A stretch of DNA of 64,000 bases from NCBI RefSeq assembly GCF_030758935.1, contig NZ_CP132333.1:2666992-2730991 (forward strand), given 5' to 3'. This stretch comes from Geothrix sp. PMB-07 (GTDB lineage: Bacteria > Acidobacteriota > Holophagae > Holophagales > Holophagaceae). A model generated the notes under the pieces. It was given only the letters and a program-made list of their open reading frames with translations. It was not told where the DNA came from and did no database searches. Made by a program: the position numbers and the translations under genes. Below are positions 9,740 to 19,943 of the stretch, piece after piece (position 1 is the stretch's first letter; every line of letters starts with the position of its first letter).

Positions 9740-9829
9740 GGAGAGATGGCCGAGTGGTTGATGGCACCGCACTCGAAATGCGGAGACGGGGAAACCTGTT
9801 CGGGGGTTCGAATCCCTCTCTCTCCGCCA
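9740..9829 (+). tRNA. tRNA-Ser (anticodon CGA)
   Basis: A 90-base class II tRNA. The acceptor stem GGAGAGA pairs with TCTCTCC; the anticodon loop is CTCGAAA (anticodon CGA); there is a long variable arm, the T-loop GGTTCGAATCC and an encoded CCA. The AT-richer foreign region starts just after its 3' end, consistent with tRNA genes being integration targets. Confidence 0.97.
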
Positions 9830-10858: not shown

Positions 10859-10967
10859 GCCTAACCTTCCGCTCAACTCGGACCCTATCGCTGCGCGATA
10901 GAGTCCTCAAACAATTCAGCGGCCATGTCCCCGCAGCAATAGGGCCGGTTAGCTTCACTCGTTAGGC
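10859..10967 (+). repeat. attC 2 (class A, 109 bp)
   Basis: R'' GCCTAAC at 10859, R' GTTAGGC at 10961-10967. Inner stem CCCTAT/ATAGGG and an L' box GGTTAGC. Class A is the commonest type in this array. Confidence 0.95.
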
Positions 10968-10972
10968 TACCC

Positions 10973-11275
10973 ATGTCTGATCTCGATAATCCTGAAGAAG
11001 CGATCTACACACTTCACTTCTTGTCAGAGTTATATCCACCCGCTCGAATGGCTGGGCTGAAGCAAATCCGGCAAGAGGAATTCGCTGGGAAGCTCTTTGT
11101 GTCTGAGTGGCTCATTATTAAGCCAGAGTTTCAAAAAATCGAGAAACGGTTGCCTGAATTCAGAGTCAAAATGATGCAGCTACGGATTCACAAGCCTGAC
11201 AATGAAAAGTGGTGCATCGTTGACTGGAAATTGCTCCGTAAGGCCATCGACCACGGTTACGCCGTTGCTGTGTAG
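10973..11275 (+). CDS. Cassette 2: hypothetical protein
   Basis: A 100-residue soluble protein with no signal peptide or membrane segment; I do not recognise the family. It is rich in charged residues (EEAIYTLHFLSELYPP, KIEKRLPEFRVKMMQLRIH) and ends with an aromatic/basic stretch around WCIVDWKLLRKAID. The ATG is only five bases after the R' box of attC 2, so no independent ribosome-binding site fits. The last base of its TAG stop is the first G of attC 3. Codon use is lower in GC than the backbone. Confidence 0.75.
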   Translation: MSDLDNPEEAIYTLHFLSELYPPARMAGLKQIRQEEFAGKLFVSEWLIIKPEFQKIEKRLPEFRVKMMQLRIHKPDNEKWCIVDWKLLRKAIDHGYAVAV

Positions 11276-11399
11276 CCTAACCTCTCGCTCAAGTCGGACC
11301 CCGCCTGCATTGCCTTCCGTTCTCTCTCAACATTTTGCTATCCCAGGCTCCGCTCATCGCCTCGACGCAGGCGTGGCCGCTTAGCTTCACTCGTTAGGC
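11275..11399 (+). repeat. attC 3 (class B, 125 bp)
   Basis: R'' GCCTAAC at 11275, R' GTTAGGC at 11393-11399. The stem includes CCGCCTGC pairing with GCAGGCG near the right arm. Confidence 0.95.
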
Positions 11400-11407
11400 G
11401 CATCTCA

Positions 11408-11860
11408 ATGAGAGTTCAAGTCCAGCATCTCTTCCTTGGATTCTGTCTGCTAATGACTGGATGCAAGCACGAAACAAAGGTTCACGAGCTTAAGGATGTG
11501 TTTGAGTCATTTGGGCGTCATAAACCTGAAACGCAGTTCCCATTTTTCGTTTTAGGTGATGAAGCCAGAAGGAAGCTGGACAAGAACAAACTAGAGCTTT
11601 TCACAAAGGCGCAGACCGACATAGATTTGATCAATTCTCGCCAACAGCCAATTTTCTGCAAACAGGTGATGGTTGTCTCTGATGGGGGCACAACCTCATT
11701 TGAAGGTCCTGAATACAACATCACCAGGCACAGTCATCTCGACCACCTGAACGGCCTGCCATGTATTTGGCGTGGTATTACCATAGAGTTCAAAGTGGCT
11801 AGTCCTGGAAACCAGGAATTGAAAGAGGTTCGACAAACCTGGGTTGAGTTCCTGCCCTGA
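11408..11860 (+). CDS. Cassette 3: putative lipoprotein
   Basis: A 150-residue protein beginning with a short basic n-region and hydrophobic core ending in the lipobox-like LLMTGC (Cys19), so it is probably a membrane-anchored lipoprotein exported by Sec. The mature part (EARRKLDKNKLELFTKAQTD, SDGGTTSFEGPEYNITRHSH) matches no family I recognise. The ATG is eight bases after attC 3. The stop precedes attC 4 by three bases, the usual tight cassette packing. Confidence 0.75.
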   Translation: MRVQVQHLFLGFCLLMTGCKHETKVHELKDVFESFGRHKPETQFPFFVLGDEARRKLDKNKLELFTKAQTDIDLINSRQQPIFCKQVMVVSDGGTTSFEGPEYNITRHSHLDHLNGLPCIWRGITIEFKVASPGNQELKEVRQTWVEFLP

Positions 11861-11863
11861 TGC

Positions 11864-12019
11864 GCCTAACCCTCCGCTGCACTCGGACCCCGCCTGCATT
11901 GTCTTCCGCTCTCTCTCAGCTTCTCGCTATCTCGGCTTCCGCTCAACTCGGACCCTATCGCTGCGCGCTAGTGTCCTCAAACAATTCAGCTGCCAGGTTC
12001 CCGCAGCAATAGGGCCGGT
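11864..12019 (+). repeat. attC 4, left part (hybrid class B/A, interrupted by IS)
   Basis: Begins as a class B attC (R'' at 11864) and switches near 11942 to a class A body (CTCAACTCGGACCCTATCG), continuing to CCGGT at 12019. There the IS200-type element starts. The remaining L' and R' boxes are on the other side at 12675-12695. Confidence 0.85.
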
Positions 12020-12676
12020 AACGATCCCCCGGCAAAGCCGGGGGCCTTATTATGTGAGCCGCTCAAAGCGGCTAAACGGGGTCGCTAACGCGGCCCCGAA
12101 GGTTGGAGCCACCTACTCGGTGGCCTCCTAGCGCCAAAGCTCCAGCTTCTCCAATCGTTCTTCCTCGCGTTCCTGGTTCTGGATGTACTGCCGTATCTGA
12201 TGCTCGTCCTTCCCTACCGTCGACACCAGAAATCCTCTCGCCCAGAAATGCTGACCCGTGAAGTTCCTCTTCGTTTCTCCATATACACGGGCCAGATAAA
12301 TCGCGCTCTTACCCTTCATAAACCCCACTACCTGCGATACGGCATACTTCGGCGGAATCGCCAACAACATATGTACGTGATCTGCCAGCAAGTGCCCTTC
12401 CAGCACTTTGCTTTCTTTCTGCCCAGCCAGCTGCCTGAACACTTCACCCAATCGCTCTCTCACCCTCCCATACATCACCTTCCTTCTTCGTTTTGGCACG
12501 AACACTACGTGATACTTACATTCCCACCTTGTGTGACTTAAACTTTCAAACAAGTCCATCTCAGTTCTCCTCAAGTGTGCTTGGCGGCTCACCTGATCAG
12601 TTCAGCGATGGACTCCCGTAGCTGTCAAACTCCGACTGTCGCCCCCGCATAGCGGGGGGCCTACCTTATGTTTTGG
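12020..12676 (-). mobile_element. IS200-type insertion sequence inside an attC site
   Basis: An element of about 657 bp with a single tnpA on the minus strand and subterminal hairpins at both ends. The left-coordinate end has a stem of five C's and GGC around AAA at 12026-12044; the other end has CCCCCGC/GCGGGGG near 12641-12657. Both are flanked by similar ATAAGG and GGCCCCC-type words. No terminal inverted repeats or target duplication are expected for this family. Extra stems lie between 12058 and 12130. It splits the L' box of attC 4; a GGT shared by both flanks leaves the junction uncertain by three bases. Confidence 0.85.
12128..12559 (-). CDS. tnpA: IS200/IS605-family transposase TnpA (Y1 HUH)
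   Basis: Single-strand transposase that cuts and joins IS ends as ssDNA. The 143-residue protein has the family's hallmarks in order: LSHTRWECKYHVVFVPKRRR at the N-terminus, the HUH metal site in LADHVHMLL, the FMKGKSA motif, and the catalytic Tyr in QIRQYIQNQ. The length fits TnpA of IS200. I start at the ATG at 12559 (MDLFESLSHT); an upstream in-frame ATG at 12592 adds 11 residues with no family support. The gene appears intact, so the copy may still be active. Confidence 0.93.
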   Translation of the reverse strand: MDLFESLSHTRWECKYHVVFVPKRRRKVMYGRVRERLGEVFRQLAGQKESKVLEGHLLADHVHMLLAIPPKYAVSQVVGFMKGKSAIYLARVYGETKRNFTGQHFWARGFLVSTVGKDEHQIRQYIQNQEREEERLEKLELWR

Positions 12677-12695
12677 TTAGCTTCGTTCGTTAGGC
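12675..12695 (+). repeat. attC 4, right part
   Basis: The L' box GGTTAGC and R' box GTTAGGC (12689-12695) that complete attC 4 on the far side of the IS200-type element. Confidence 0.85.
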
Positions 12696-12727
12696 ATCTC
12701 CGAAAACTCTAGCAAAGAGCCGCCACC

Positions 12728-13078
12728 ATGCCCGCACGCGAGATCTCAAAGCTGCTTTTCACGACTGTCTATCCGCTATACGTCCAAAAGGCCGAGCGAA
12801 AGAACCGGACTAGAGACGAGGTGGACACGATTATCTGCTGGTTGACGGGTTACAGCCAAGAACAACTCAACCAGCACAAGGCTGTGAACATTGATTTCCA
12901 GGCCTTTTTCGACCAGGCTCCGACCATTCATCCGAATAGCTCTAAAATTACGGGTGTCGTTTGTGGCGTTCGGGTCGAGGAGATTCAGGATCCAATCACA
13001 CAGAAAATCAGGCACCTCGATAAGCTCATTGATGAACTCGCGAAGGGCAAATCCATCGACAAGATTTTGCGCCAATAG
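12728..13078 (+). CDS. Cassette 4: DUF2200 family protein
   Basis: A 116-residue cytoplasmic protein matching DUF2200 over its whole length: the TTVYPLYVQKAERKNRTRDE start, the IICWLTGYSQ motif, ITGVVCGVRVEEI and the ending HLDKLIDELAKGKSIDKIL. Function is unknown; the family is widespread in bacteria and is seen on mobile DNA. Here it has a normal leader of 32 bases after the attC, unlike most cassettes. It ends 37 bases before attC 5. Confidence 0.88.
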   Translation: MPAREISKLLFTTVYPLYVQKAERKNRTRDEVDTIICWLTGYSQEQLNQHKAVNIDFQAFFDQAPTIHPNSSKITGVVCGVRVEEIQDPITQKIRHLDKLIDELAKGKSIDKILRQ

Positions 13079-13115
13079 GCCGAGGCCAATCGAATGACAT
13101 CCCCAACCAGCATCT

Positions 13116-13182
13116 GCCTAACCGTTCGCTCAAGCGGACCCGTGCGCAGGCGCCCGGTCCGCTTAGCTCATTCCCGTTAGGT
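13116..13182 (+). repeat. attC 5 (class C, 67 bp)
   Basis: R'' GCCTAAC at 13116, R' GTTAGGT at 13176-13182. The arms GCTCAAGCGGACC and GGTCCGCTTAGC pair perfectly except for one extra C in the left arm. That is the extrahelical base typical of attC sites. Confidence 0.95.
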
Positions 13183-13190
13183 CGCCTTTC

Positions 13191-13568
13191 ATGACTGTCG
13201 ATGCAAACCCAAAACGGAATCGCATCTACTGGATCGGTCTGATCATCTACATCAGTTACTCCCTACTAACACTCAGCTATTGGATCTGGGATTGGTTCCA
13301 CAACCATGGAATGAAGCGTTTTTTCCTTGGGACCTGGTGGATCGGCACTGCACCAGCGATGTTGATTCCAACCTTTCCAAGCTCAGTTTCAATCGGGATC
13401 ATTTTCCTTCCCCTTCCTGCATGGCTAGATTCATTCCTGGCAAAGCACAGCTTCGCCTTTATGCTCATGATCTGGCTCTGGCTCGCGCTTGTCGGGTTCA
13501 TTCAATGGTTTATTGTGGTTCCACACATTTGGTCAAAACTGCGGGGCAAACGCGCCCAGGCGGCCTAA
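13191..13568 (+). CDS. Cassette 5: small integral membrane protein
   Basis: A 125-residue protein with three clear hydrophobic segments (about residues 12-34, YWIGLIIYISYSLLTLSYW; 45-75; and 88-110, FMLMIWLWLALVGFIQWFIV) and a basic C-terminus (KLRGKRAQAA). Family not recognised. The ATG lies eight bases after attC 5. The TAA stop is inside the R'' box of attC 6 (GCC TAA), so the last codon and the stop are supplied by the recombination site. Confidence 0.75.
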   Translation: MTVDANPKRNRIYWIGLIIYISYSLLTLSYWIWDWFHNHGMKRFFLGTWWIGTAPAMLIPTFPSSVSIGIIFLPLPAWLDSFLAKHSFAFMLMIWLWLALVGFIQWFIVVPHIWSKLRGKRAQAA

Positions 13569-13689
13569 CCCTGCGCTCAACTCGGACCCAGCCGCGAGCG
13601 GCTGAGTCCTTGCTTCCTGGCAACTCAGACTTCCCTTCTCCGCCAATCGCTTCAGCCGCGGCTGGTCCGGTTAGCTTCTCTCGTTAGGC
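13563..13689 (+). repeat. attC 6 (class D, 127 bp)
   Basis: R'' GCCTAAC at 13563, R' GTTAGGC at 13683-13689. A distinctive stem with CCAGCCGCGAGCGGCTGAG on the left and CAGCCGCGGCTGG on the right. The only one of its type here. Confidence 0.93.
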
Positions 13690-13695
13690 GTTCAT

Positions 13696-14106
13696 GTGAT
13701 CTTGCGGCTCACGAAGAAACAAACTCAAGCAATTCACCTCGCGCTAACGGGGTTTGCCTTCTTCTGCATGATCCAGGCCATGTACTACCCATTCGTTGGC
13801 CATCCAAGGTGGTGGCAAATTCGATTCTTCTCTGACATTGGTTGGTTTATCGGCATTCCGCCGCTGCTACTTGGCCGTTGGCTAATCGAACGCATCCCGG
13901 CGCTAATGAATCAGCCTTTCGCTTGGTCACTCGCACTGGCTTGGGCTCTAATCATTCCATTCCCCATATCGCTGGGGCTGAATCGCCTAACCTCTCGCTC
14001 AACTCGGACCCCGCCTGCATTGCCTGGCGTCCTCTTTCTTGCTCTGGCTATCTCGGCTTCGCTCAGCGCCTCGGTGCAGGCGGGTCCGGTTAGCTTCATC
14101 CGTTAG
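13696..14106 (+). CDS. Cassette 6: small membrane protein reading through attC 7
   Basis: An open frame of 136 codons starting at a GTG six bases after attC 6. Three hydrophobic segments are visible (about residues 13-32, ALTGFAFFCMIQAMYYPFVG; 44-62; 76-95, SLALAWALIIPFPISLGL). No stop occurs before attC 7: from residue 97 the reading frame is attC sequence (NRLTSRSTRTPPALPG) and it stops at a TAG inside the R' box. The gene has probably lost its own stop, or the attC-encoded tail is part of the protein. Family unknown. Confidence 0.6.
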   Translation: MILRLTKKQTQAIHLALTGFAFFCMIQAMYYPFVGHPRWWQIRFFSDIGWFIGIPPLLLGRWLIERIPALMNQPFAWSLALAWALIIPFPISLGLNRLTSRSTRTPPALPGVLFLALAISASLSASVQAGPVSFIR

Positions 14107-14108
14107 GC
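13985..14108 (+). repeat. attC 7 (class B, 124 bp)
   Basis: R'' GCCTAAC at 13985, R' GTTAGGC at 14102-14108. Fully overlapped by the tail of the cassette 6 frame. Confidence 0.95.
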
Positions 14109-14132
14109 CTTCCAATATTCGGGGAGCAATCC

Positions 14133-14354
14133 ATGTGGGACTTCCTCGCAGCAATTCTAGAAATCGCCACAGCAGCGACTCCGATTCGCGTGTTCGTGGC
14201 TCTGATTCCAACTCTTCTCATTGCTAGTCTCGTATATTGGGCTGTTCCTGATAAATCAACAGGCGCCTGGCTATTCGGAGTAATTTTTGTAGTGGGCATC
14301 TCGCTCGGCTTCTGGTGGCACTTCCGAGAGCTAAAATATGATCGTCAAGCCTGA
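14133..14354 (+). CDS. Cassette 7: two-helix membrane protein
   Basis: A 73-residue protein with two hydrophobic segments (about residues 4-36, including PIRVFVALIPTLLIASLVYW, and 46-63, WLFGVIFVVGISLGFWW) and a charged C-terminus (HFRELKYDRQA). A GGGGAG ribosome-binding site lies eight bases before the ATG. Family not recognised. It ends three bases before attC 8. Confidence 0.7.
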   Translation: MWDFLAAILEIATAATPIRVFVALIPTLLIASLVYWAVPDKSTGAWLFGVIFVVGISLGFWWHFRELKYDRQA

Positions 14355-14356
14355 AG

Positions 14357-14465
14357 GCCTAACCTTCCGCTCAACTCGGACCCTATCGCTGCGCGCTAGT
14401 GTCCTCAAACAATTCAGCATCCGGGTCCCCGCAGCAATAGGGCCGGTTAGCTTCTCTCGTTAGGC
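14357..14465 (+). repeat. attC 8 (class A, 109 bp)
   Basis: R'' at 14357, R' at 14459-14465; body nearly identical to attC 2. Confidence 0.95.
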
Positions 14466-14474
14466 AATCCACCG

Positions 14475-14867
14475 ATGGTCGAGATCGTCCTCCAGATCCT
14501 GATTGAGTTTCTAGGCGAACTCCTTCTCATGTTCGGAGTCGAATCGGTTGTCGCCCCATTTCAGCCTGCGAAAGCCACGAATCGAATCCTTGCCTTCTCA
14601 GGACTCTTCATTCTGGCGGTGGCATCCAGTTTGATTTTTTCGCTCTTCGCACCAAACCGTCTTCTTCCACAATTCCGAGTTGCTGGGGTCAGCCTGCTCA
14701 TTTCGCCCATCCTGGTAGGCTCAGTAATGCATATCTTCGGTCAGTGGCGTACCGAGCGCGGGAAACCGATCACTCACCTTGCCACTTTCTGGGGTGGCGC
14801 CTATTACAGTTTCTTCTTCGCACTAACACGGGTCATATTCCTCTATTTCAACACCCCGATTGCCTAA
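14475..14867 (+). CDS. Cassette 8: small integral membrane protein
   Basis: A 130-residue protein with about four hydrophobic segments: VLQILIEFLGELLLMFGV (5-22), ILAFSGLFILAVASSLIFSL (38-57), VAGVSLLISPILVGSVMHIF (69-88) and YYSFFFALTRVIFLYF (110-125). Family not recognised. The ATG is nine bases after the R' box. The Ala codon and TAA stop fall in the R'' box of attC 9. Confidence 0.75.
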   Translation: MVEIVLQILIEFLGELLLMFGVESVVAPFQPAKATNRILAFSGLFILAVASSLIFSLFAPNRLLPQFRVAGVSLLISPILVGSVMHIFGQWRTERGKPITHLATFWGGAYYSFFFALTRVIFLYFNTPIA

Positions 14868-14970
14868 CCCTCCGCTCAACTCGGACCCTATCGCTGCGCG
14901 CTAGTGTCCTCAAACAATTCAACGACTCGGTTCCCGCAGCAATAGGGCCGGTTAGCTTCTCTCGTTAGGC
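14862..14970 (+). repeat. attC 9 (class A, 109 bp)
   Basis: R'' at 14862, R' at 14964-14970. The R'' box supplies the stop codon of cassette 8. Confidence 0.95.
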
Positions 14971-14979
14971 CTCCAACCC

Positions 14980-15234
14980 ATGTCACCCCTCCTTCTCGCT
15001 GCCACGTCGATCCCGCCCATCATTTGGGGGATGAATATCTGGGGCGGGTGGGCTGAGAAGATCGTTGGTCTCCAGATAGATCCCTATTTCTCAGAGTTTT
15101 GGTTGAGAGTATTCCAGATCGAAATCAACAAAGAAAATCGAATCAGATTCATTCGAGCAGCAAGCTTGGTCCTCTCCGTTGTATACCTGATCCTGGTCGG
15201 CGGTTTCCTTCTACTGATAGCACTATGGCCGTAA
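14980..15234 (+). CDS. Cassette 9: small membrane protein
   Basis: An 84-residue protein. There is a moderately hydrophobic N-terminus (LLLAATSIPPIIWGMNIWGGW) and a strong C-terminal membrane segment (about residues 62-82, LVLSVVYLILVGGFLLLIAL), with a basic patch between them (NKENRIRFIRAA). Family not recognised. The start lies nine bases after attC 8's neighbour attC 9, leaving only the R' box as a possible ribosome-binding site. Confidence 0.65.
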   Translation: MSPLLLAATSIPPIIWGMNIWGGWAEKIVGLQIDPYFSEFWLRVFQIEINKENRIRFIRAASLVLSVVYLILVGGFLLLIALWP

Positions 15235-15240
15235 CAGTCG

Positions 15241-15348
15241 GCCTAACCTCTCGCTCAACTCGGACCCTATCGCTGCGCGCTAGTGTCCTCAAACAATTCA
15301 GCCTCCGTGTCCCGCAGCGATAGGGCCGGTTAGCTTCTCTCGTTAGGC
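15241..15348 (+). repeat. attC 10 (class A, 108 bp)
   Basis: R'' at 15241, R' at 15342-15348. Confidence 0.95.
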
Positions 15349-15353
15349 CGCTC

Positions 15354-15704
15354 ATGCCAGACCTGGTAACTCGGCAAGAAATCGTCGAACTGCTGAATTC
15401 CTGGCAGGCAGGAAAACTCAATGCTCAATCTGTTTATGATTGGGCAAACGAACGGTATTCAACTGAACACTGGAATGTCGAAGATGAGATCGTGAACGAG
15501 GTTTTGTCTGAACTTGATATTCTCGACATCAACCTCATCACCACTGACGACATTCCGGTGTTCTTGAAAGTGCTCGCTCTCCCGCCAGCTCAAATTGATT
15601 CAGCCATTGCCATTCTCAAAGCCCATTCTCTGACCTTCAGCATTGAGGCTCGTAAGCAACAATGCCGCAAAGACCCCTTCTATGCCTGGCTTCTCAATGA
15701 ATAA
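15354..15704 (+). CDS. Cassette 10: acidic hypothetical protein
   Basis: A 116-residue soluble, acidic, mostly helical protein (TRQEIVELLNSWQAGKLNAQ, VEDEIVNEVLSELDILDINL, ending KDPFYAWLLNE). No membrane segment or signal peptide. The acidity and small size recall immunity or antitoxin proteins, but I recognise no family and do not assign a function. The ATG is five bases after the R' box. Confidence 0.75.
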   Translation: MPDLVTRQEIVELLNSWQAGKLNAQSVYDWANERYSTEHWNVEDEIVNEVLSELDILDINLITTDDIPVFLKVLALPPAQIDSAIAILKAHSLTFSIEARKQQCRKDPFYAWLLNE

Positions 15705-15715
15705 CACTCCCAGCG

Positions 15716-15839
15716 GCCTAACCCTCCGCTCAAGTCGGACCCCGCCTGCATTGCCTTTCGCTCTCTCTCAGCAGTTCGCTATCTCGGCTCCGTTCACCGT
15801 CTCGGTGCAGGCGTGGCCGCTTAGCTTCATTCGTTAGGC
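15716..15839 (+). repeat. attC 11 (class B, 124 bp)
   Basis: R'' at 15716, R' at 15833-15839. Confidence 0.95.
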
Positions 15840-15843
15840 CCGC

Positions 15844-16056
15844 CTATCTCAGTTGCCCTGTCGGGCCGCTATGACCGTTCGCGCGGCCATTCAACACCGT
15901 TCGCCGTGGCCCACCCAGAAAGGGCCAAACTTCTGCCATCGTCTCGGTAACCTGGGTCCACGACCAGCGTCTAAAGCCTTCAGGTTTCTCGTCCCATCGC
16001 TCTTTCAATCCTTCAAAACCAGGTTTCGCTGCCCGAGTCGCTCTTGTCACCTGCAT
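15844..16056 (-). CDS. Cassette 11: possible reverse-strand ORF
   Basis: This cassette (15840-16064) has no convincing rightward gene. The best candidate is a 70-codon leftward frame from an ATG at 16056, giving a Trp-rich basic peptide (KERWDEKPEGFRRWSWTQV). There is no clear Shine-Dalgarno sequence and I recognise no homologue. The frame remains open upstream into attC 12. It may simply be a non-coding cassette. Confidence 0.25.
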   Translation of the reverse strand: MQVTRATRAAKPGFEGLKERWDEKPEGFRRWSWTQVTETMAEVWPFLGGPRRTVLNGRANGHSGPTGQLR

Positions 16057-16064
16057 CTCGCTCG

Positions 16065-16131
16065 GCCTAACCCTTCGCTCTAGCGGACCCGGGCGCCAGC
16101 GCCCGGTCCGCAAAGCTCACTCTCGTTAGGC
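16065..16131 (+). repeat. attC 12 (class C, 67 bp)
   Basis: R'' at 16065, R' at 16125-16131; the short stem CGGACCCGGGCGCC / GGCGCCCGGTCCG-type pairing resembles attC 5. Confidence 0.93.
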
Positions 16132-16264
16132 CTCGAAAGCAGGTTGGTTTCGGCGGTTCAGGCATTCCGCATTACCCTGTCATCACGAAGCTCGTTCCGT
16201 TCTTTCAAAGGCCTGTCGGTTCTTCCATCGCGCCGGTTCATGCTTCGGCAGAATCAGCGTCTCG
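16132..16264. other. Cassette 12: short cassette without ORF
   Basis: Only 133 bases lie between attC 12 and attC 13. No frame of useful length with a start is visible on either strand. ORF-less cassettes are known in large arrays and may carry promoters or small RNAs; nothing specific is seen here. Confidence 0.6.
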
Positions 16265-16372
16265 GCCTAACCGCTAGCTCAACTCGGACCCTATCGCTGC
16301 GCGCTAGTGTCCTCAAACAATTCAGCAGCCGTGTCCCGCAGCGATAGGGCCGGTTACCTTCCTTCGTTAGGC
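16265..16372 (+). repeat. attC 13 (class A, 108 bp)
   Basis: R'' at 16265, R' at 16366-16372. The L' region reads GGTTACC instead of GGTTAGC. Confidence 0.93.
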
Positions 16373-16373
16373 T

Positions 16374-16658
16374 TCATCTCAACGGCAGGGCACCAAAGGC
16401 CACGAAGGCAAGCACCACAAGCCCAGCTACAACAAAGAAGGCCCCTAGAATTCTCGCTCTTCGGTTTGTATTCGGGCGGTGCACATAAGACTTCAGCGAC
16501 TCGGTTCTTCCAGGAAAAGCCCCTTCAAACGGATCACCGTTTTTTAGATATTTCTTCCAAGTTTTCCAGTAGTGCTTCGGTCAGAGCAACATCCAAAGGC
16601 CAAACCCAAGCGCCATACCTACCCAAGCCACTACAATGGCTAAAACACCAAGCGGCAC
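16374..16658 (-). pseudogene. Cassette 13: leftward membrane-protein gene with an in-frame TGA
   Basis: On the minus strand an AAGGAG site lies seven bases before a GTG at 16658. The frame encodes a hydrophobic N-terminus (VLAIVVAWVGMALGFGLWML), then a TGA at codon 26 (16583-16581). It continues without further interruption for 68 codons (KHYWKTWKKYLKNGDPF, NTNRRARILGAFFVVAGLVV) to a TGA at 16374. Removing the one stop would give a 94-residue protein with two membrane helices. A nonsense mutation is the simplest explanation; a sequencing error or recoding is possible. It is opposite in orientation to the attC sites. Confidence 0.6.
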
Positions 16659-16701
16659 AGCGTCTCCTTTTCATTCAGAGCAATCATGCCATACCCATTC
16701 A

Positions 16702-16810
16702 GCCTAACCTTTCGCTCAACTCGGACCCTATCGCTGCGCGCTAGTGTCCTCAAACAATTCAGCGAGTCGGTCCCCGCAGCAATAGGGCCGGTTAGCTTCT
16801 CTCGTTAGGC
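16702..16810 (+). repeat. attC 14 (class A, 109 bp)
   Basis: R'' at 16702, R' at 16804-16810. Confidence 0.95.
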
Positions 16811-16816
16811 GTTCAC

Positions 16817-17074
16817 ATGGACCACAAGCCCGAAATCGGCGACCAGGTGAAGCTCAGTGCCTTTCTCGGCGACACAATCCCGCCGAAGAACTGCGATCCG
16901 AGCGAGAACTTCTGGAGGCTGATTGGCCAACGTGGCAAGGTCATAGCTGAAATCCCAGGCTCAGATCGTGTTCTCGTTGGGTTTGAATGCTCAATTCAGT
17001 CCTTCGGCCTCCAATGCCACAACCCAGAGCCCAACAGCCTGCGTATCAAATGGGCTGACCTTGAGCGCGCCTAA
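16817..17074 (+). CDS. Cassette 14: hypothetical soluble protein
   Basis: An 85-residue protein, probably a small beta-rich domain (GDQVKLSAFLG, GQRGKVIAEIPGSDRVLVGF, ending NSLRIKWADLERA). It has a Cys in NCDPSENFW and one in LQCHNPEP that could bind metal or pair. Family not recognised. The ATG is six bases after attC 14; the final Ala codon and TAA stop are inside the R'' box of attC 15. Confidence 0.75.
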   Translation: MDHKPEIGDQVKLSAFLGDTIPPKNCDPSENFWRLIGQRGKVIAEIPGSDRVLVGFECSIQSFGLQCHNPEPNSLRIKWADLERA

Positions 17075-17192
17075 CCTCTCGCTGCACTCGGACCCCGCCT
17101 GCATTGTCTTCCGCTCTCTCTCAACTTCTTGCTAACTCGGCTTCGTTCATCGTCTCGGTACAGGCGGGGCCGGTGAGCTTCATTCGTTAGGC
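17069..17192 (+). repeat. attC 15 (class B, 124 bp)
   Basis: R'' at 17069, R' at 17186-17192. Supplies the stop codon of cassette 14. Confidence 0.95.
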
Positions 17193-17554
17193 ACACCCGG
17201 CGCATTCCCATCGTCTTCCGGGTTCGATCCTTCTCAATCGGAGTACGCGGTTCAGCGCCCTGGCTTTACCAATCGCGAATCTCTGCGCCCCGGTAATTCA
17301 AACTCGCCATGAATGGCGGGCTTGCGCTGTCGCGCTGCGCAGTCGTTCTCCGCCACTCCTCCGGTGAATCCAGCCGCTTCTCGTGGCATCCTGGCTCCGC
17401 CGTTCCATCCCTTGCATCACCCCTGGCGCAATCCGCCTCAGTTCTTTGCCTTTGGGTTCGGCACCCCGACCATCCTTCATGTTCGGGCGGCATCCCGCTC
17501 GTTGCACCCACTCCCGACATTTCAACGCACGAGTGGGCTCCAGCTTCATCGGGT
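17193..17554. other. Cassette 15: no convincing gene
   Basis: A 362-base cassette. Overlapping frames exist on both strands, but none has a ribosome-binding site or protein-like composition. The 3' third is shared with cassette 1: 17424-17456 is identical to 10727-10759, and both cassettes end with CATCGGGTGCCTAAC. This looks like a degraded or non-coding cassette related by recombination to cassette 1. Confidence 0.55.
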
Positions 17555-17662
17555 GCCTAACCTTCCGCTCAACTCGGACCCTATCGCTGCGCGATAGAGT
17601 CCTCAAACAATTCAGCGCCCGTGTCCCGCAGCAATACGGCCGGTTAGCTTCTCTCGTTAGGC
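17555..17662 (+). repeat. attC 16 (class A, 108 bp)
   Basis: R'' at 17555, R' at 17656-17662. Like attC 2 it reads GCGCGATAGAG where the others have GCGCGCTAGTG, so the two related cassettes (1 and 15) also share an attC variant. Confidence 0.95.
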
Positions 17663-17668
17663 GTCACA

Positions 17669-18058
17669 GTGAGCCCAGAGCAAGCCCCCGAAATTTCCGA
17701 TTCCGCCCGAGCAGCGATTGCCAGGCGCTACTTCAGCTACATCGGATTCTGGTTTCTCGGTTTCATTGGTTACAGCATCTATGCCGTGAAATCCTCTGGT
17801 ACTACTCGATCATTATTGGGCGGTATATTGGTAGCGCTCATTCTCGCGCCTATGGCTCTGAATAAAAAATATCGGCCCTTCTACCTCTGGTTCCTGATCG
17901 GCGCCTTCATCGCATTCATTGCCTTAATGCAGGCTCAGCCGTATGTTCTGGAATTGAAGCAGAAAAGTGGTGAACGCCTAACTCTCCGCTCAACTCGGAC
18001 CCTATCGCTGCGCGCTAGTGTCCTCAAACAATTCAGCATCCGTGTCCCGCAGCAATAG
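17669..18058 (+). CDS. Cassette 16: small membrane protein with attC-encoded tail
   Basis: A 129-codon frame from a GTG six bases after attC 16. Three hydrophobic segments are visible (about residues 22-40, YFSYIGFWFLGFIGYSIY; 48-64, SLLGGILVALILAPMAL; 71-90, FYLWFLIGAFIAFIALMQ). No stop precedes attC 17. From residue 104 the frame is attC sequence (LTLRSTRTLSLRASVLKQF) and ends at a TAG in the CAATAG of the right arm. Family not recognised; the start and first 100 residues look real. Confidence 0.65.
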   Translation: MSPEQAPEISDSARAAIARRYFSYIGFWFLGFIGYSIYAVKSSGTTRSLLGGILVALILAPMALNKKYRPFYLWFLIGAFIAFIALMQAQPYVLELKQKSGERLTLRSTRTLSLRASVLKQFSIRVPQQ

Positions 18059-18083
18059 GGCCGGTTAGCTTCACTCGTTAGGC
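17976..18083 (+). repeat. attC 17 (class A, 108 bp)
   Basis: R'' at 17976, R' at 18077-18083. Confidence 0.95.
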
Positions 18084-18093
18084 CTCCTCCAAC

Positions 18094-18438
18094 ATGCCAA
18101 TTACCACCTCGGTCAAATCGAAAGCAAATCAAGAACTGGTTGCCTACTGTGCGGCCAAGATTCCTGCTCACGTTCAGGACAAGATCAAGCTGTCGATTAC
18201 TTGGCATGGAAGCAAAGCGACGCTGATTGAACATCGGCCCTATTTCCTTGACTCTTCAAAGTGGATCGACAGCCCGGTCGCTCAACTTCGATTCGATTCT
18301 GCCACTGGCCTCTGGCACCTTTTCTGTCGAGATCGAAACCAGCGCTGGCATTCTTTCCAGCCAATGCCATCCTCTTCAAATCTACACAAGCTCATCGCAG
18401 AAATTGATCGTGATCAAACTGGCATTTTCTGGGGCTAG
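18094..18438 (+). CDS. Cassette 17: DUF3024 family protein
   Basis: A 114-residue cytoplasmic protein matching DUF3024 throughout: CAAKIPAHVQDKIKL, the HRPYFLDSSKW segment, SPVAQLRFDSATGLWHLF, RDRNQRWHSFQ, and the conserved ending EIDRDQTGIFWG. The function of the family is unknown; it is common in proteobacterial cassettes and islands. The ATG is ten bases after attC 17. The stop is five bases before attC 18. Confidence 0.9.
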   Translation: MPITTSVKSKANQELVAYCAAKIPAHVQDKIKLSITWHGSKATLIEHRPYFLDSSKWIDSPVAQLRFDSATGLWHLFCRDRNQRWHSFQPMPSSSNLHKLIAEIDRDQTGIFWG

Positions 18439-18443
18439 GTTCG

Positions 18444-18552
18444 GCCTAACCTTCCGCTCAACTCGGACCCTATCGCTGCGCGCTAGTGTCCTCAAACAAT
18501 TCAACAGCTCCGTCCCCGCAGCAATAGGGCCGGTTAGCTTCCTTCGTTAGGC
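18444..18552 (+). repeat. attC 18 (class A, 109 bp)
   Basis: R'' at 18444, R' at 18546-18552. Confidence 0.95.
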
Positions 18553-18585
18553 CTTGCCCGGTGCATACCGCAGGAGGTTCTATCA

Positions 18586-19104
18586 ATGCGGCGAACTCTG
18601 ATTTCCGTCATTACTTTCTGTTCATTGGCCTGTTCTGGAATTGGTTGGGCCGCTCCACTCAAGGATCCTCTCCTAGAGCGCTTGGTTGGCAATTGGGTGC
18701 TTAGGGGAACGATCGCCAGAAAACAAACCACACACGATGTCGTTACTGAGTGGTTCTTGGATCACCAGTACCTTCGCCTCCATGAGGTATCTCGTGATAA
18801 GGACGACAAAGGGCATCCACTGTATGAAGCAGTTGTGCTCATTGGCTGGGATGAGGTGGCCCTGGAATATCAATGTCTTTGGCTCGACTCCACAGGAGGT
18901 GGTGGCCTTACGGCCCAAGGCATCGCACAAGGCAAACGAAGCGGCGATTCGATTCCCTTCCTTTTTCGAGAGCGCGACGGAACCATTTCCTTCAACAACA
19001 CCTTCTCATATGACAAGACCAACGACTCTTGGTCTTGGCAAATGGATAACGTGAGAAACGGGAAGGCCGTCCCTTTTGGCCGTGTAAAATTAACAAGACA
19101 ATAG
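18586..19104 (+). CDS. Cassette 18: secreted DUF1579-like protein
   Basis: A 172-residue exported protein: signal peptide (ISVITFCSLACSGIGWAAP, cleavage near residue 23) followed by a lipocalin-like beta-barrel pattern. It opens with LLERLVGNWVLRGTI and continues with WFLDHQYLRLHEV and YEAVVLIGWDEVALEYQCLW. The GNW motif and repeated strands fit DUF1579 / THAP4-like ligand-binding folds, but the ligand is unknown. A strong AGGAGG site precedes the ATG, so this cassette brings its own translation start. It is the largest cassette protein in the array. Confidence 0.75.
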   Translation: MRRTLISVITFCSLACSGIGWAAPLKDPLLERLVGNWVLRGTIARKQTTHDVVTEWFLDHQYLRLHEVSRDKDDKGHPLYEAVVLIGWDEVALEYQCLWLDSTGGGGLTAQGIAQGKRSGDSIPFLFRERDGTISFNNTFSYDKTNDSWSWQMDNVRNGKAVPFGRVKLTRQ

Positions 19105-19131
19105 CCAAAACTCCTATGCCTGTCCCGCAAG

Positions 19132-19239
19132 GCCTAACCCTCAACTCAACTCGAACCCTATCGCTGCGCGCTAGTGTCCTCAAACAACTCAGCTCCCGTG
19201 TCCCGCAGCAATAGGGCCGGTTAGCTTCCTTCGTTAGGC
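19132..19239 (+). repeat. attC 19 (class A, 108 bp)
   Basis: R'' at 19132, R' at 19233-19239. Confidence 0.95.
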
Positions 19240-19302
19240 GGCCAATCAACAGGCATTCCCGTTCCTGTCATAATGGGTTCTGAGGTAACCCGGAGATCAC
19301 TA

Positions 19303-19569
19303 ATGCCCATCATCTCCATGTTTTATGGAATCATCATTCGGTTGTACCTACTCGACAACCTGCATCACAACTTGCCCCACATTCACGCCAAATACGCTGA
19401 GTTCGAAGCCTCGATTGGACTCGCTGATGGCGATGTCCTGGCAGGCGAACTCCCTCGCAAACAGCTTCGACTCGTTCAAGCGTGGATTGAACTCCATCGT
19501 GATGAGCTTCTCGCCGATTGGGAATTGGCTGTCAGCGGGGAAAATCCGTACAAAATCGATCCTCTGTGA
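19303..19569 (+). CDS. Cassette 19, gene 1: DUF4160 protein (putative toxin)
   Basis: An 88-residue protein matching DUF4160: the MPIISMFYGIIIRLYLLD start, the HHNLPHIHAKYAEFEASIGL motif, and ELPRKQLRLVQAWIELHRDEL. DUF4160 genes are typically paired with a DUF2442 gene and the pair is annotated as a toxin-antitoxin module; which partner is toxic is not settled by sequence. I start at the ATG at 19303, where GGAG lies upstream; an ATG at 19273 adds ten residues outside the family. The partner starts seven bases downstream. Confidence 0.88.
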   Translation: MPIISMFYGIIIRLYLLDNLHHNLPHIHAKYAEFEASIGLADGDVLAGELPRKQLRLVQAWIELHRDELLADWELAVSGENPYKIDPL

Positions 19570-19576
19570 GGTTGCC

Positions 19577-19825
19577 ATGTATTGGGATGTCACGTCAGTA
19601 AAGCCTCTTCCCGATTATCAGCTCTATCTTGAGATCCAAGATGGCCGTAAAGGGGTCTTCGACCTCAAACCGTACCTTGATAGAGGCGTGTTCCGCGAAC
19701 TCAAAGATGTTAATTACTTCAACCAGGTTGGCATTTTATTCGGCGCTATCACCTGGCCCCATGACCAGGATATTGCGCCAGAAACGCTTCTCGCTGAAAT
19801 GAGGCCAGTGGGCCCGTCCGCCTAA
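19577..19825 (+). CDS. Cassette 19, gene 2: DUF2442 protein (putative antitoxin)
   Basis: An 82-residue protein of DUF2442 type (DVTSVKPLPDYQLYLEIQDG, GVFDLKPYLDRGVFRELKD, the ITWPHDQDIAPETLLAE ending). Directly follows the DUF4160 gene, with GAGG ahead of the ATG. The final Ala codon and TAA stop are within the R'' box of attC 20. As one of only two genes in a two-gene cassette, it supports a toxin-antitoxin role for the pair, which could stabilise the array against loss. Confidence 0.87.
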   Translation: MYWDVTSVKPLPDYQLYLEIQDGRKGVFDLKPYLDRGVFRELKDVNYFNQVGILFGAITWPHDQDIAPETLLAEMRPVGPSA

Positions 19826-19943
19826 CCCTCCGCTCAAGTCGGACCCCGCCTGCACTGCCCTCCGCTCTCTCTCAGCATTTCGCGATCTCGGCTCCGCCTA
19901 TCGTCTCGGTGCAGGCGCGGCCGCTTAGCTTCATTCGTTAGGC
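19820..19943 (+). repeat. attC 20 (class B, 124 bp)
   Basis: R'' at 19820, R' at 19937-19943. Supplies the stop of the DUF2442 gene. Confidence 0.95.

What the first reader, a model, noticed from the sequence alone, without database searches (positions are those of the whole stretch)
11864..12695. IS200-type element inserted into the L' box of an attC
IS200/IS605 elements move as single-stranded DNA, and attC sites act as folded single strands. Here an apparently intact IS200-type element sits precisely between CCGGT and TAGCTTC of attC 4, splitting the L' box. This is reminiscent of IS1111-attC elements that target attC, but in a different IS family. It inactivates the site, locking cassettes 3 and 4 together.
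Basis: partly seen in the sequence, partly recalled or inferred. Interest (0 to 1): 0.65.

Follow-up and report, generated by a model that had tools for sequence, protein, structure and literature searches.

The report
IS200 element aimed at integron sites
A tiny jumping gene that moves as single-stranded DNA has inserted at least five separate times at the same base of integron recombination sites, because its built-in 4-letter DNA guide matches a word found in most of those sites.

Summary
A 658-bp IS200-group element (window 12018-12675, tnpA on the minus strand) sits inside the L' box of an attC (11864-12695). The genome holds six identical copies. Five lie in five different attC sites, at the same base and orientation, with unrelated cassettes around them. 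The sixth is outside attC but shares the target TAAC|C. A diverged relative in another species of the genus, and an old derivative in this genome, also abut attC at that position. The target is therefore a word, not attC itself: the guides obey the IS608 pairing rule (left TAGG with TAAC, right AAGG with TTAC), and 9 of 9 distinct guide/target combinations fit among relatives aimed at TTAC, TTAT, CTAG and CTAA. All six copies have the active strand on the lagging-strand template. TAACC is rare here (about 1,350 sites), and about 60 are attC L' boxes on the correct strand. That explains much of the enrichment; against non-coding lagging-strand sites P is about 0.006, so an extra attC preference is possible but unproven. 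'Inactivates the site' is not shown. New variant of a known kind: an IS200/IS605 analogue of IS1111-attC elements and group IIC-attC introns.

The parts
12018..12675 (-). whole IS200-group element, 658 bp, ends placed by the IS608 cut rule (3-nt ambiguity)
   Evidence: six identical copies with different flanks; end placement from relatives and PMC5934647
12128..12592 (-). tnpA, 154 aa (GTG start at 12592; alternative ATG start at 12559 after GAGGAG)
12676..12679 (-). left cleavage site / target TAAC (kept in the attC flank)
   Evidence: TAAC|C in all six copies and in relatives B and C
12660..12663 (-). left guide TAGG
   Evidence: pairs with TAAC by the IS608 rule
12642..12658 (-). left-end subterminal hairpin CCCCCGC-TAT-GCGGGGG
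12026..12044 (-). right-end subterminal hairpin CCCCCGGC-TTT-GCCGGGGG
12045..12048 (-). right guide AAGG
   Evidence: pairs with TTAC by the IS608 rule
12018..12021 (-). right cleavage site TTAC, 3' end of the element
11864..12017 (+). attC part 1: R'', L'', variable region and the first bases of L' (GGGCCG); composite of two attC types
12676..12695 (+). attC part 2: rest of L' (GTTAGC), spacer and R' (GTTAGGC)
10859..19943 (+). array of attC-bordered cassettes (18 intact attC found plus the interrupted one); no integrase gene in the window

Best explanation
This is an IS200-group 'peel and paste' element. Its TnpA cuts and joins single-stranded DNA on the lagging-strand template. The target is chosen by base pairing between a 4-nt DNA guide 5' of the left hairpin (TAGG) and the word TAAC, followed by C. 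In this genus the bottom strand of most attC sites carries GCTAACC in the L' box, and the arrays of this genome face so that this strand is the lagging-strand template. These boxes are therefore the largest single set of exact, dispensable targets, and the element lands there repeatedly, always with tnpA opposite to the cassette order. Shown: anatomy, identical copies, target word, guide/target covariation, strand bias. Inferred: the ssDNA reaction, and that attC needs no further recognition.
For: Six identical copies, all at TAAC|C; five in different attC sites. Guides obey the IS608 rule (guide 1 with target 2, guide 2 with target 1, guide 4 with target 4): 27 of 27 pairs in 9 distinct combinations against a shuffled mean of 15.7, 1 of 20,000 shuffles reaching it (IS608 guides, cleavage sites and +1 C preference from PMC5934647). 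TAAC-guided members form one clade (97/96) while TnpAs 69-75% identical aim at TTAC, TTAT, CTAG or CTAA. All copies have the target on the lagging-strand template: dnaA near 4.24 Mb, skew flips at about 2.0 Mb, copies + at 0.70-1.22 Mb and - at 2.68-2.98 Mb; the five G032 copies agree. About 60 attC L' TAACC sites on that strand of about 530 in the genome. A relative in G006 (both ends kept, tnpA deleted inside) sits in a different attC type at the same base.
Against: Against the strictest whole-genome null (non-coding lagging-strand TAACC) 5 of 6 still gives P about 0.006, so availability may not be the whole story; local hopping could also cluster copies. The single copy in G010 is not in attC although that genome has 48 such sites. 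The guide register is inferred from covariation, not measured. No transposition was observed.
Confidence: 0.78

Rival explanations
1. The clade has a true attC preference beyond TAAC|C: TnpA or the ends exploit the folded attC or the single-stranded DNA it exposes during replication.
For: 5 of 6 in attC exceeds the strict null (P about 0.006); the association recurs in a diverged relative in another species and in an old derivative at 3.276 Mb whose right flank is attC L'.
Against: No conserved base outside TAAC|C when the non-attC copies are included. In the folded bottom strand TAAC is paired inside the L stem, which should hinder guide pairing. Among lagging-strand TAACC inside the arrays 60 of 81 are L' boxes, so 5 of 5 there is not unusual (0.22). 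The G010 copy is not in attC.
Confidence: 0.25
2. A single insertion was copied into other attC sites by cassette movement or by homologous recombination between attC sites.
For: All copies are 100% identical in tnpA and attC sites are near-identical repeats.
Against: Flanks share only the attC itself; cassettes on both sides differ and the attC halves differ (GAGAG, GAGTG, GAGGG, GAACG; 109-bp type and composite); a different element in G006 hits another attC type.
Confidence: 0.05
3. Coincidence: a weakly specific IS200 landing at random.
For: IS200 targets are only 4-5 bases (general knowledge; PMC5934647).
Against: P about 1e-6 over all TAACC and 1e-4 over lagging-strand TAACC; opposite-strand TAACC at R'' (about 76 sites in the arrays) was never hit.
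Confidence: 0.03

Closest known systems
IS608 / IS200-IS605 family, IS200 group (nearest named hit among plasmid records: ISMex34, 73% TnpA identity over 86%)
   Same: Y1 HUH transposase, subterminal hairpins, guide/target tetranucleotide pairing, pyrimidine at +1, lagging-strand bias, no target duplication
   Different: guide TAGG aims it at TAAC, which lies in attC L' boxes; no tnpB (IS608 has one)
IS1111-attC group (ISKpn4, ISPst6)
   Same: insertion at a fixed base of attC sites in cassette arrays
   Different: different transposase chemistry (DEDD) and an RNA (seekRNA) rather than a DNA guide
Group IIC-attC introns
   Same: use the attC bottom strand, opposite to the cassettes
   Different: retroelement using the hairpin and TTGT/T near R''; here no RT and the site is in the L' box
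ISHahl1 beside the Halorhodospira halochloris CALIN (PMC7923331)
   Same: IS200/IS605 family next to attC sites
   Different: IS605 group with tnpB, downstream of the last attC and not inside one

Membership tests
IS200/IS605 family, IS200 group | Y1 HUH TnpA of about 150 aa | tested here: met
IS200/IS605 family, IS200 group | no tnpB | tested here: met
   658-bp element holds only tnpA
IS200/IS605 family, IS200 group | subterminal hairpins, no terminal inverted repeats, no target duplication | tested here: met
   flanks joined give GCTAACCGGCC as in intact attC
IS200/IS605 family, IS200 group | guide tetranucleotides complementary to cleavage sites | tested here: met
IS200/IS605 family, IS200 group | lagging-strand template bias | tested here: met
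   6 of 6 copies here, 5 of 5 in G032
IS200/IS605 family, IS200 group | single-stranded circular intermediate | not testable with these tools
   needs a transposition assay
IS1111-attC group | DEDD transposase with noncoding seekRNA region | tested here: not met
   transposase is Y1 HUH
IS1111-attC group | attC as the specific target | tested here: inconclusive
   5 of 6 in attC, one outside; the word TAAC|C may suffice
Group IIC-attC intron | group II ribozyme and reverse transcriptase | tested here: not met
   only tnpA in the element; no Rfam intron hit

The most novel reading that the evidence does not exclude
A clade of IS200 elements has specialised as integron parasites: a guide change re-aimed it from TTAC-like words to TAAC in the attC L' box, and it uses attC or integron replication polarity beyond the four-base word, so that it shapes or freezes cassette arrays.
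Probability: 0.25. Interest if true: 0.72.

Novelty: new variant of a known kind. Interest (0 to 1): 0.55.

Why it matters
Two systems that both depend on single-stranded DNA of the lagging-strand template meet at one base of attC. It gives a third, independent kind of mobile element recurrently found in attC, with a DNA-guide explanation that can be tested by changing four bases. The relatives also give a natural set of guide/target pairs supporting the IS608 pairing code outside the laboratory.

Tried and rejected
An alternative guide register with GTAG as left guide fitted our element but failed for the CTAG and CTAA relatives; TAGG with the 1-2, 2-1, 4-4 rule fits all. A reading with the cut after TAACC was dropped because IS608 prefers C at +1 and the tetranucleotide cut fits the relatives. 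I saw no complementarity by eye between the 3' side of the left hairpin and the attC sequence upstream of TAAC (extended targeting as engineered in IS608). A scan of 122 loci of relatives for attC halves on both sides recovered the attC copies of this genome and G006 and no other convincing case (a first version with an L-box filter missed the positive controls, and was discarded). One G030 pattern hit was a chance match in apparent coding sequence. Literature searches found no report of an IS200/IS605 element inside attC, within an open-licence library only.

Full report
What is there. The window region 11864-12695 is an attC split by an IS200-group element. The element is 658 bp (12018-12675), encodes one intact TnpA on the minus strand, and has a hairpin near each end. 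Joining the flanks gives the L' sequence of neighbouring intact attC sites, with no target duplication. Because GGT stands on both sides in the plus strand, the cut is ambiguous by three bases; the family rule places it after TAAC on the tnpA strand.

Other copies. The genome (4.24 Mb, one contig) holds six identical TnpA copies and one diverged fragment. Five of the six lie in attC sites, at the same base and in the same orientation; the sixth lies upstream of an RHS-like gene. Flank comparison shows that the five share only attC-type sequence, with different cassettes, so they are separate insertions. All six share TAAC|C and nothing more. In G006, a species of the same genus, a relative with both ends but an internally deleted tnpA sits in a different attC type at the same base. 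An old derivative at 3.276 Mb has attC L' sequence on its right and unrelated sequence on its left. The one copy in G010 has the same target outside attC.

How it picks its target. In IS608 the cleavage sites are read by guide tetranucleotides 5' of the hairpins, with a preference for C at +1 (PMC5934647). The published IS608 pairs (AAAG with TTAC, GAAT with TCAA) fit the rule guide 1 with target 2, guide 2 with target 1, guide 4 with target 4. Our element (TAGG with TAAC, AAGG with TTAC) and its relatives (AAAG/TTAC, AAAA/TTAT, AGAC/CTAG, AGAT/CTAA, AAAC/TTAG, AAGC/TTAG, AAGA/TTAT) all fit, 27 of 27 pairs; 1 of 20,000 shuffles did as well. The guide 4 / target 4 pair shows all four Watson-Crick types. 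The rule was read off these data and IS608 together, so it is a fit rather than a blind prediction. The TAAC-guided members form one clade within a set whose other members are aimed elsewhere (many forks elsewhere in that tree are unresolved).

Why attC. GCTAACC in the L' box is a genus-wide feature: 35 of 47 genomes have such sites. In this genome the word CTAACC occurs only 335 times against 1,760 for its reversed control. Three arrays carry about 60 L' TAACC sites, all on the strand that is the lagging-strand template given dnaA near 4.24 Mb and a skew flip near 2.0 Mb. IS200/IS605 elements use that strand (PMC6006769), and attC bottom strands in chromosomal integrons are mostly on it too (PMC8946536). 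Five of six in attC L' has P about 1e-6 over all TAACC, 1e-4 over lagging-strand sites and 0.006 over non-coding lagging-strand sites, and is unremarkable (0.22 for 5 of 5) among lagging-strand TAACC within the arrays. The counts outside the arrays come from a 400-kb sample with a crude ORF caller, and the insertions are treated as independent, so these values are rough. Word, strand and dispensability explain much; a further attC preference is not excluded.

Effect on the attC. In the folded bottom strand TAAC is paired in the L stem. The cut leaves R' and six to seven of nine L' bases together and puts the element on the terminal-loop side. A fold of the whole interrupted site does not show the R and L arms paired, but a minimum-energy fold of 832 nt is no test of integrase activity. 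Inactivation is thus plausible and unproven.

Relation to known systems. By structure it is an IS200-group member. By behaviour it resembles IS1111-attC elements and group IIC-attC introns, from which it differs in enzyme, guide and position. No report of an IS200/IS605 element inside attC was found in the open-licence library.

Noticed in passing
11864-12017: The interrupted attC is a composite: the 5' part of the ~124-bp attC type runs into a nearly whole 109-bp type near 11930-11950, with about 10 bases (CTTCCGCTCA) that could have served as microhomology.
   Followed up: partly
12057-12128: Three tandem hairpins between the tnpA stop and the right end, conserved in sequence in relatives from several phyla; function unknown (terminator or regulatory RNA?).
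   Followed up: no
12559-12642: Leader between the left hairpin and tnpA (GTTTGACA ... GTGAGCCGCCAAGCACAC) looks conserved across distant relatives, more than expected of an untranslated leader.
   Followed up: no
G000:C1:166039-167016 and 719303-720256 (L120, L121): Two integron integrase genes: one with an open frame and no attC of this type in the 60 kb around it, one beside the 0.70-0.72 Mb array with an in-frame TGA. The window array and the 1.2 Mb array have none (CALIN-like).
   Followed up: partly
L201 (G000 3.276 Mb) and L103 (3.290 Mb): Decayed relatives of the element; the first, near IS5-like transposase sequence, keeps both ends without tnpA, with attC sequence on the right only.
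   Followed up: partly
L132 about 2534-2854 minus (G006): Non-autonomous, internally deleted element with both ends intact in an attC; it could be mobilised in trans.
   Followed up: yes
whole genome G000: CTAACC is about five-fold rarer than its reversed control, so the attC L' boxes are a large share of all copies of this word.
   Followed up: yes
9740-9826: A tRNA gene lies just upstream of the cassette array in the window.
   Followed up: no
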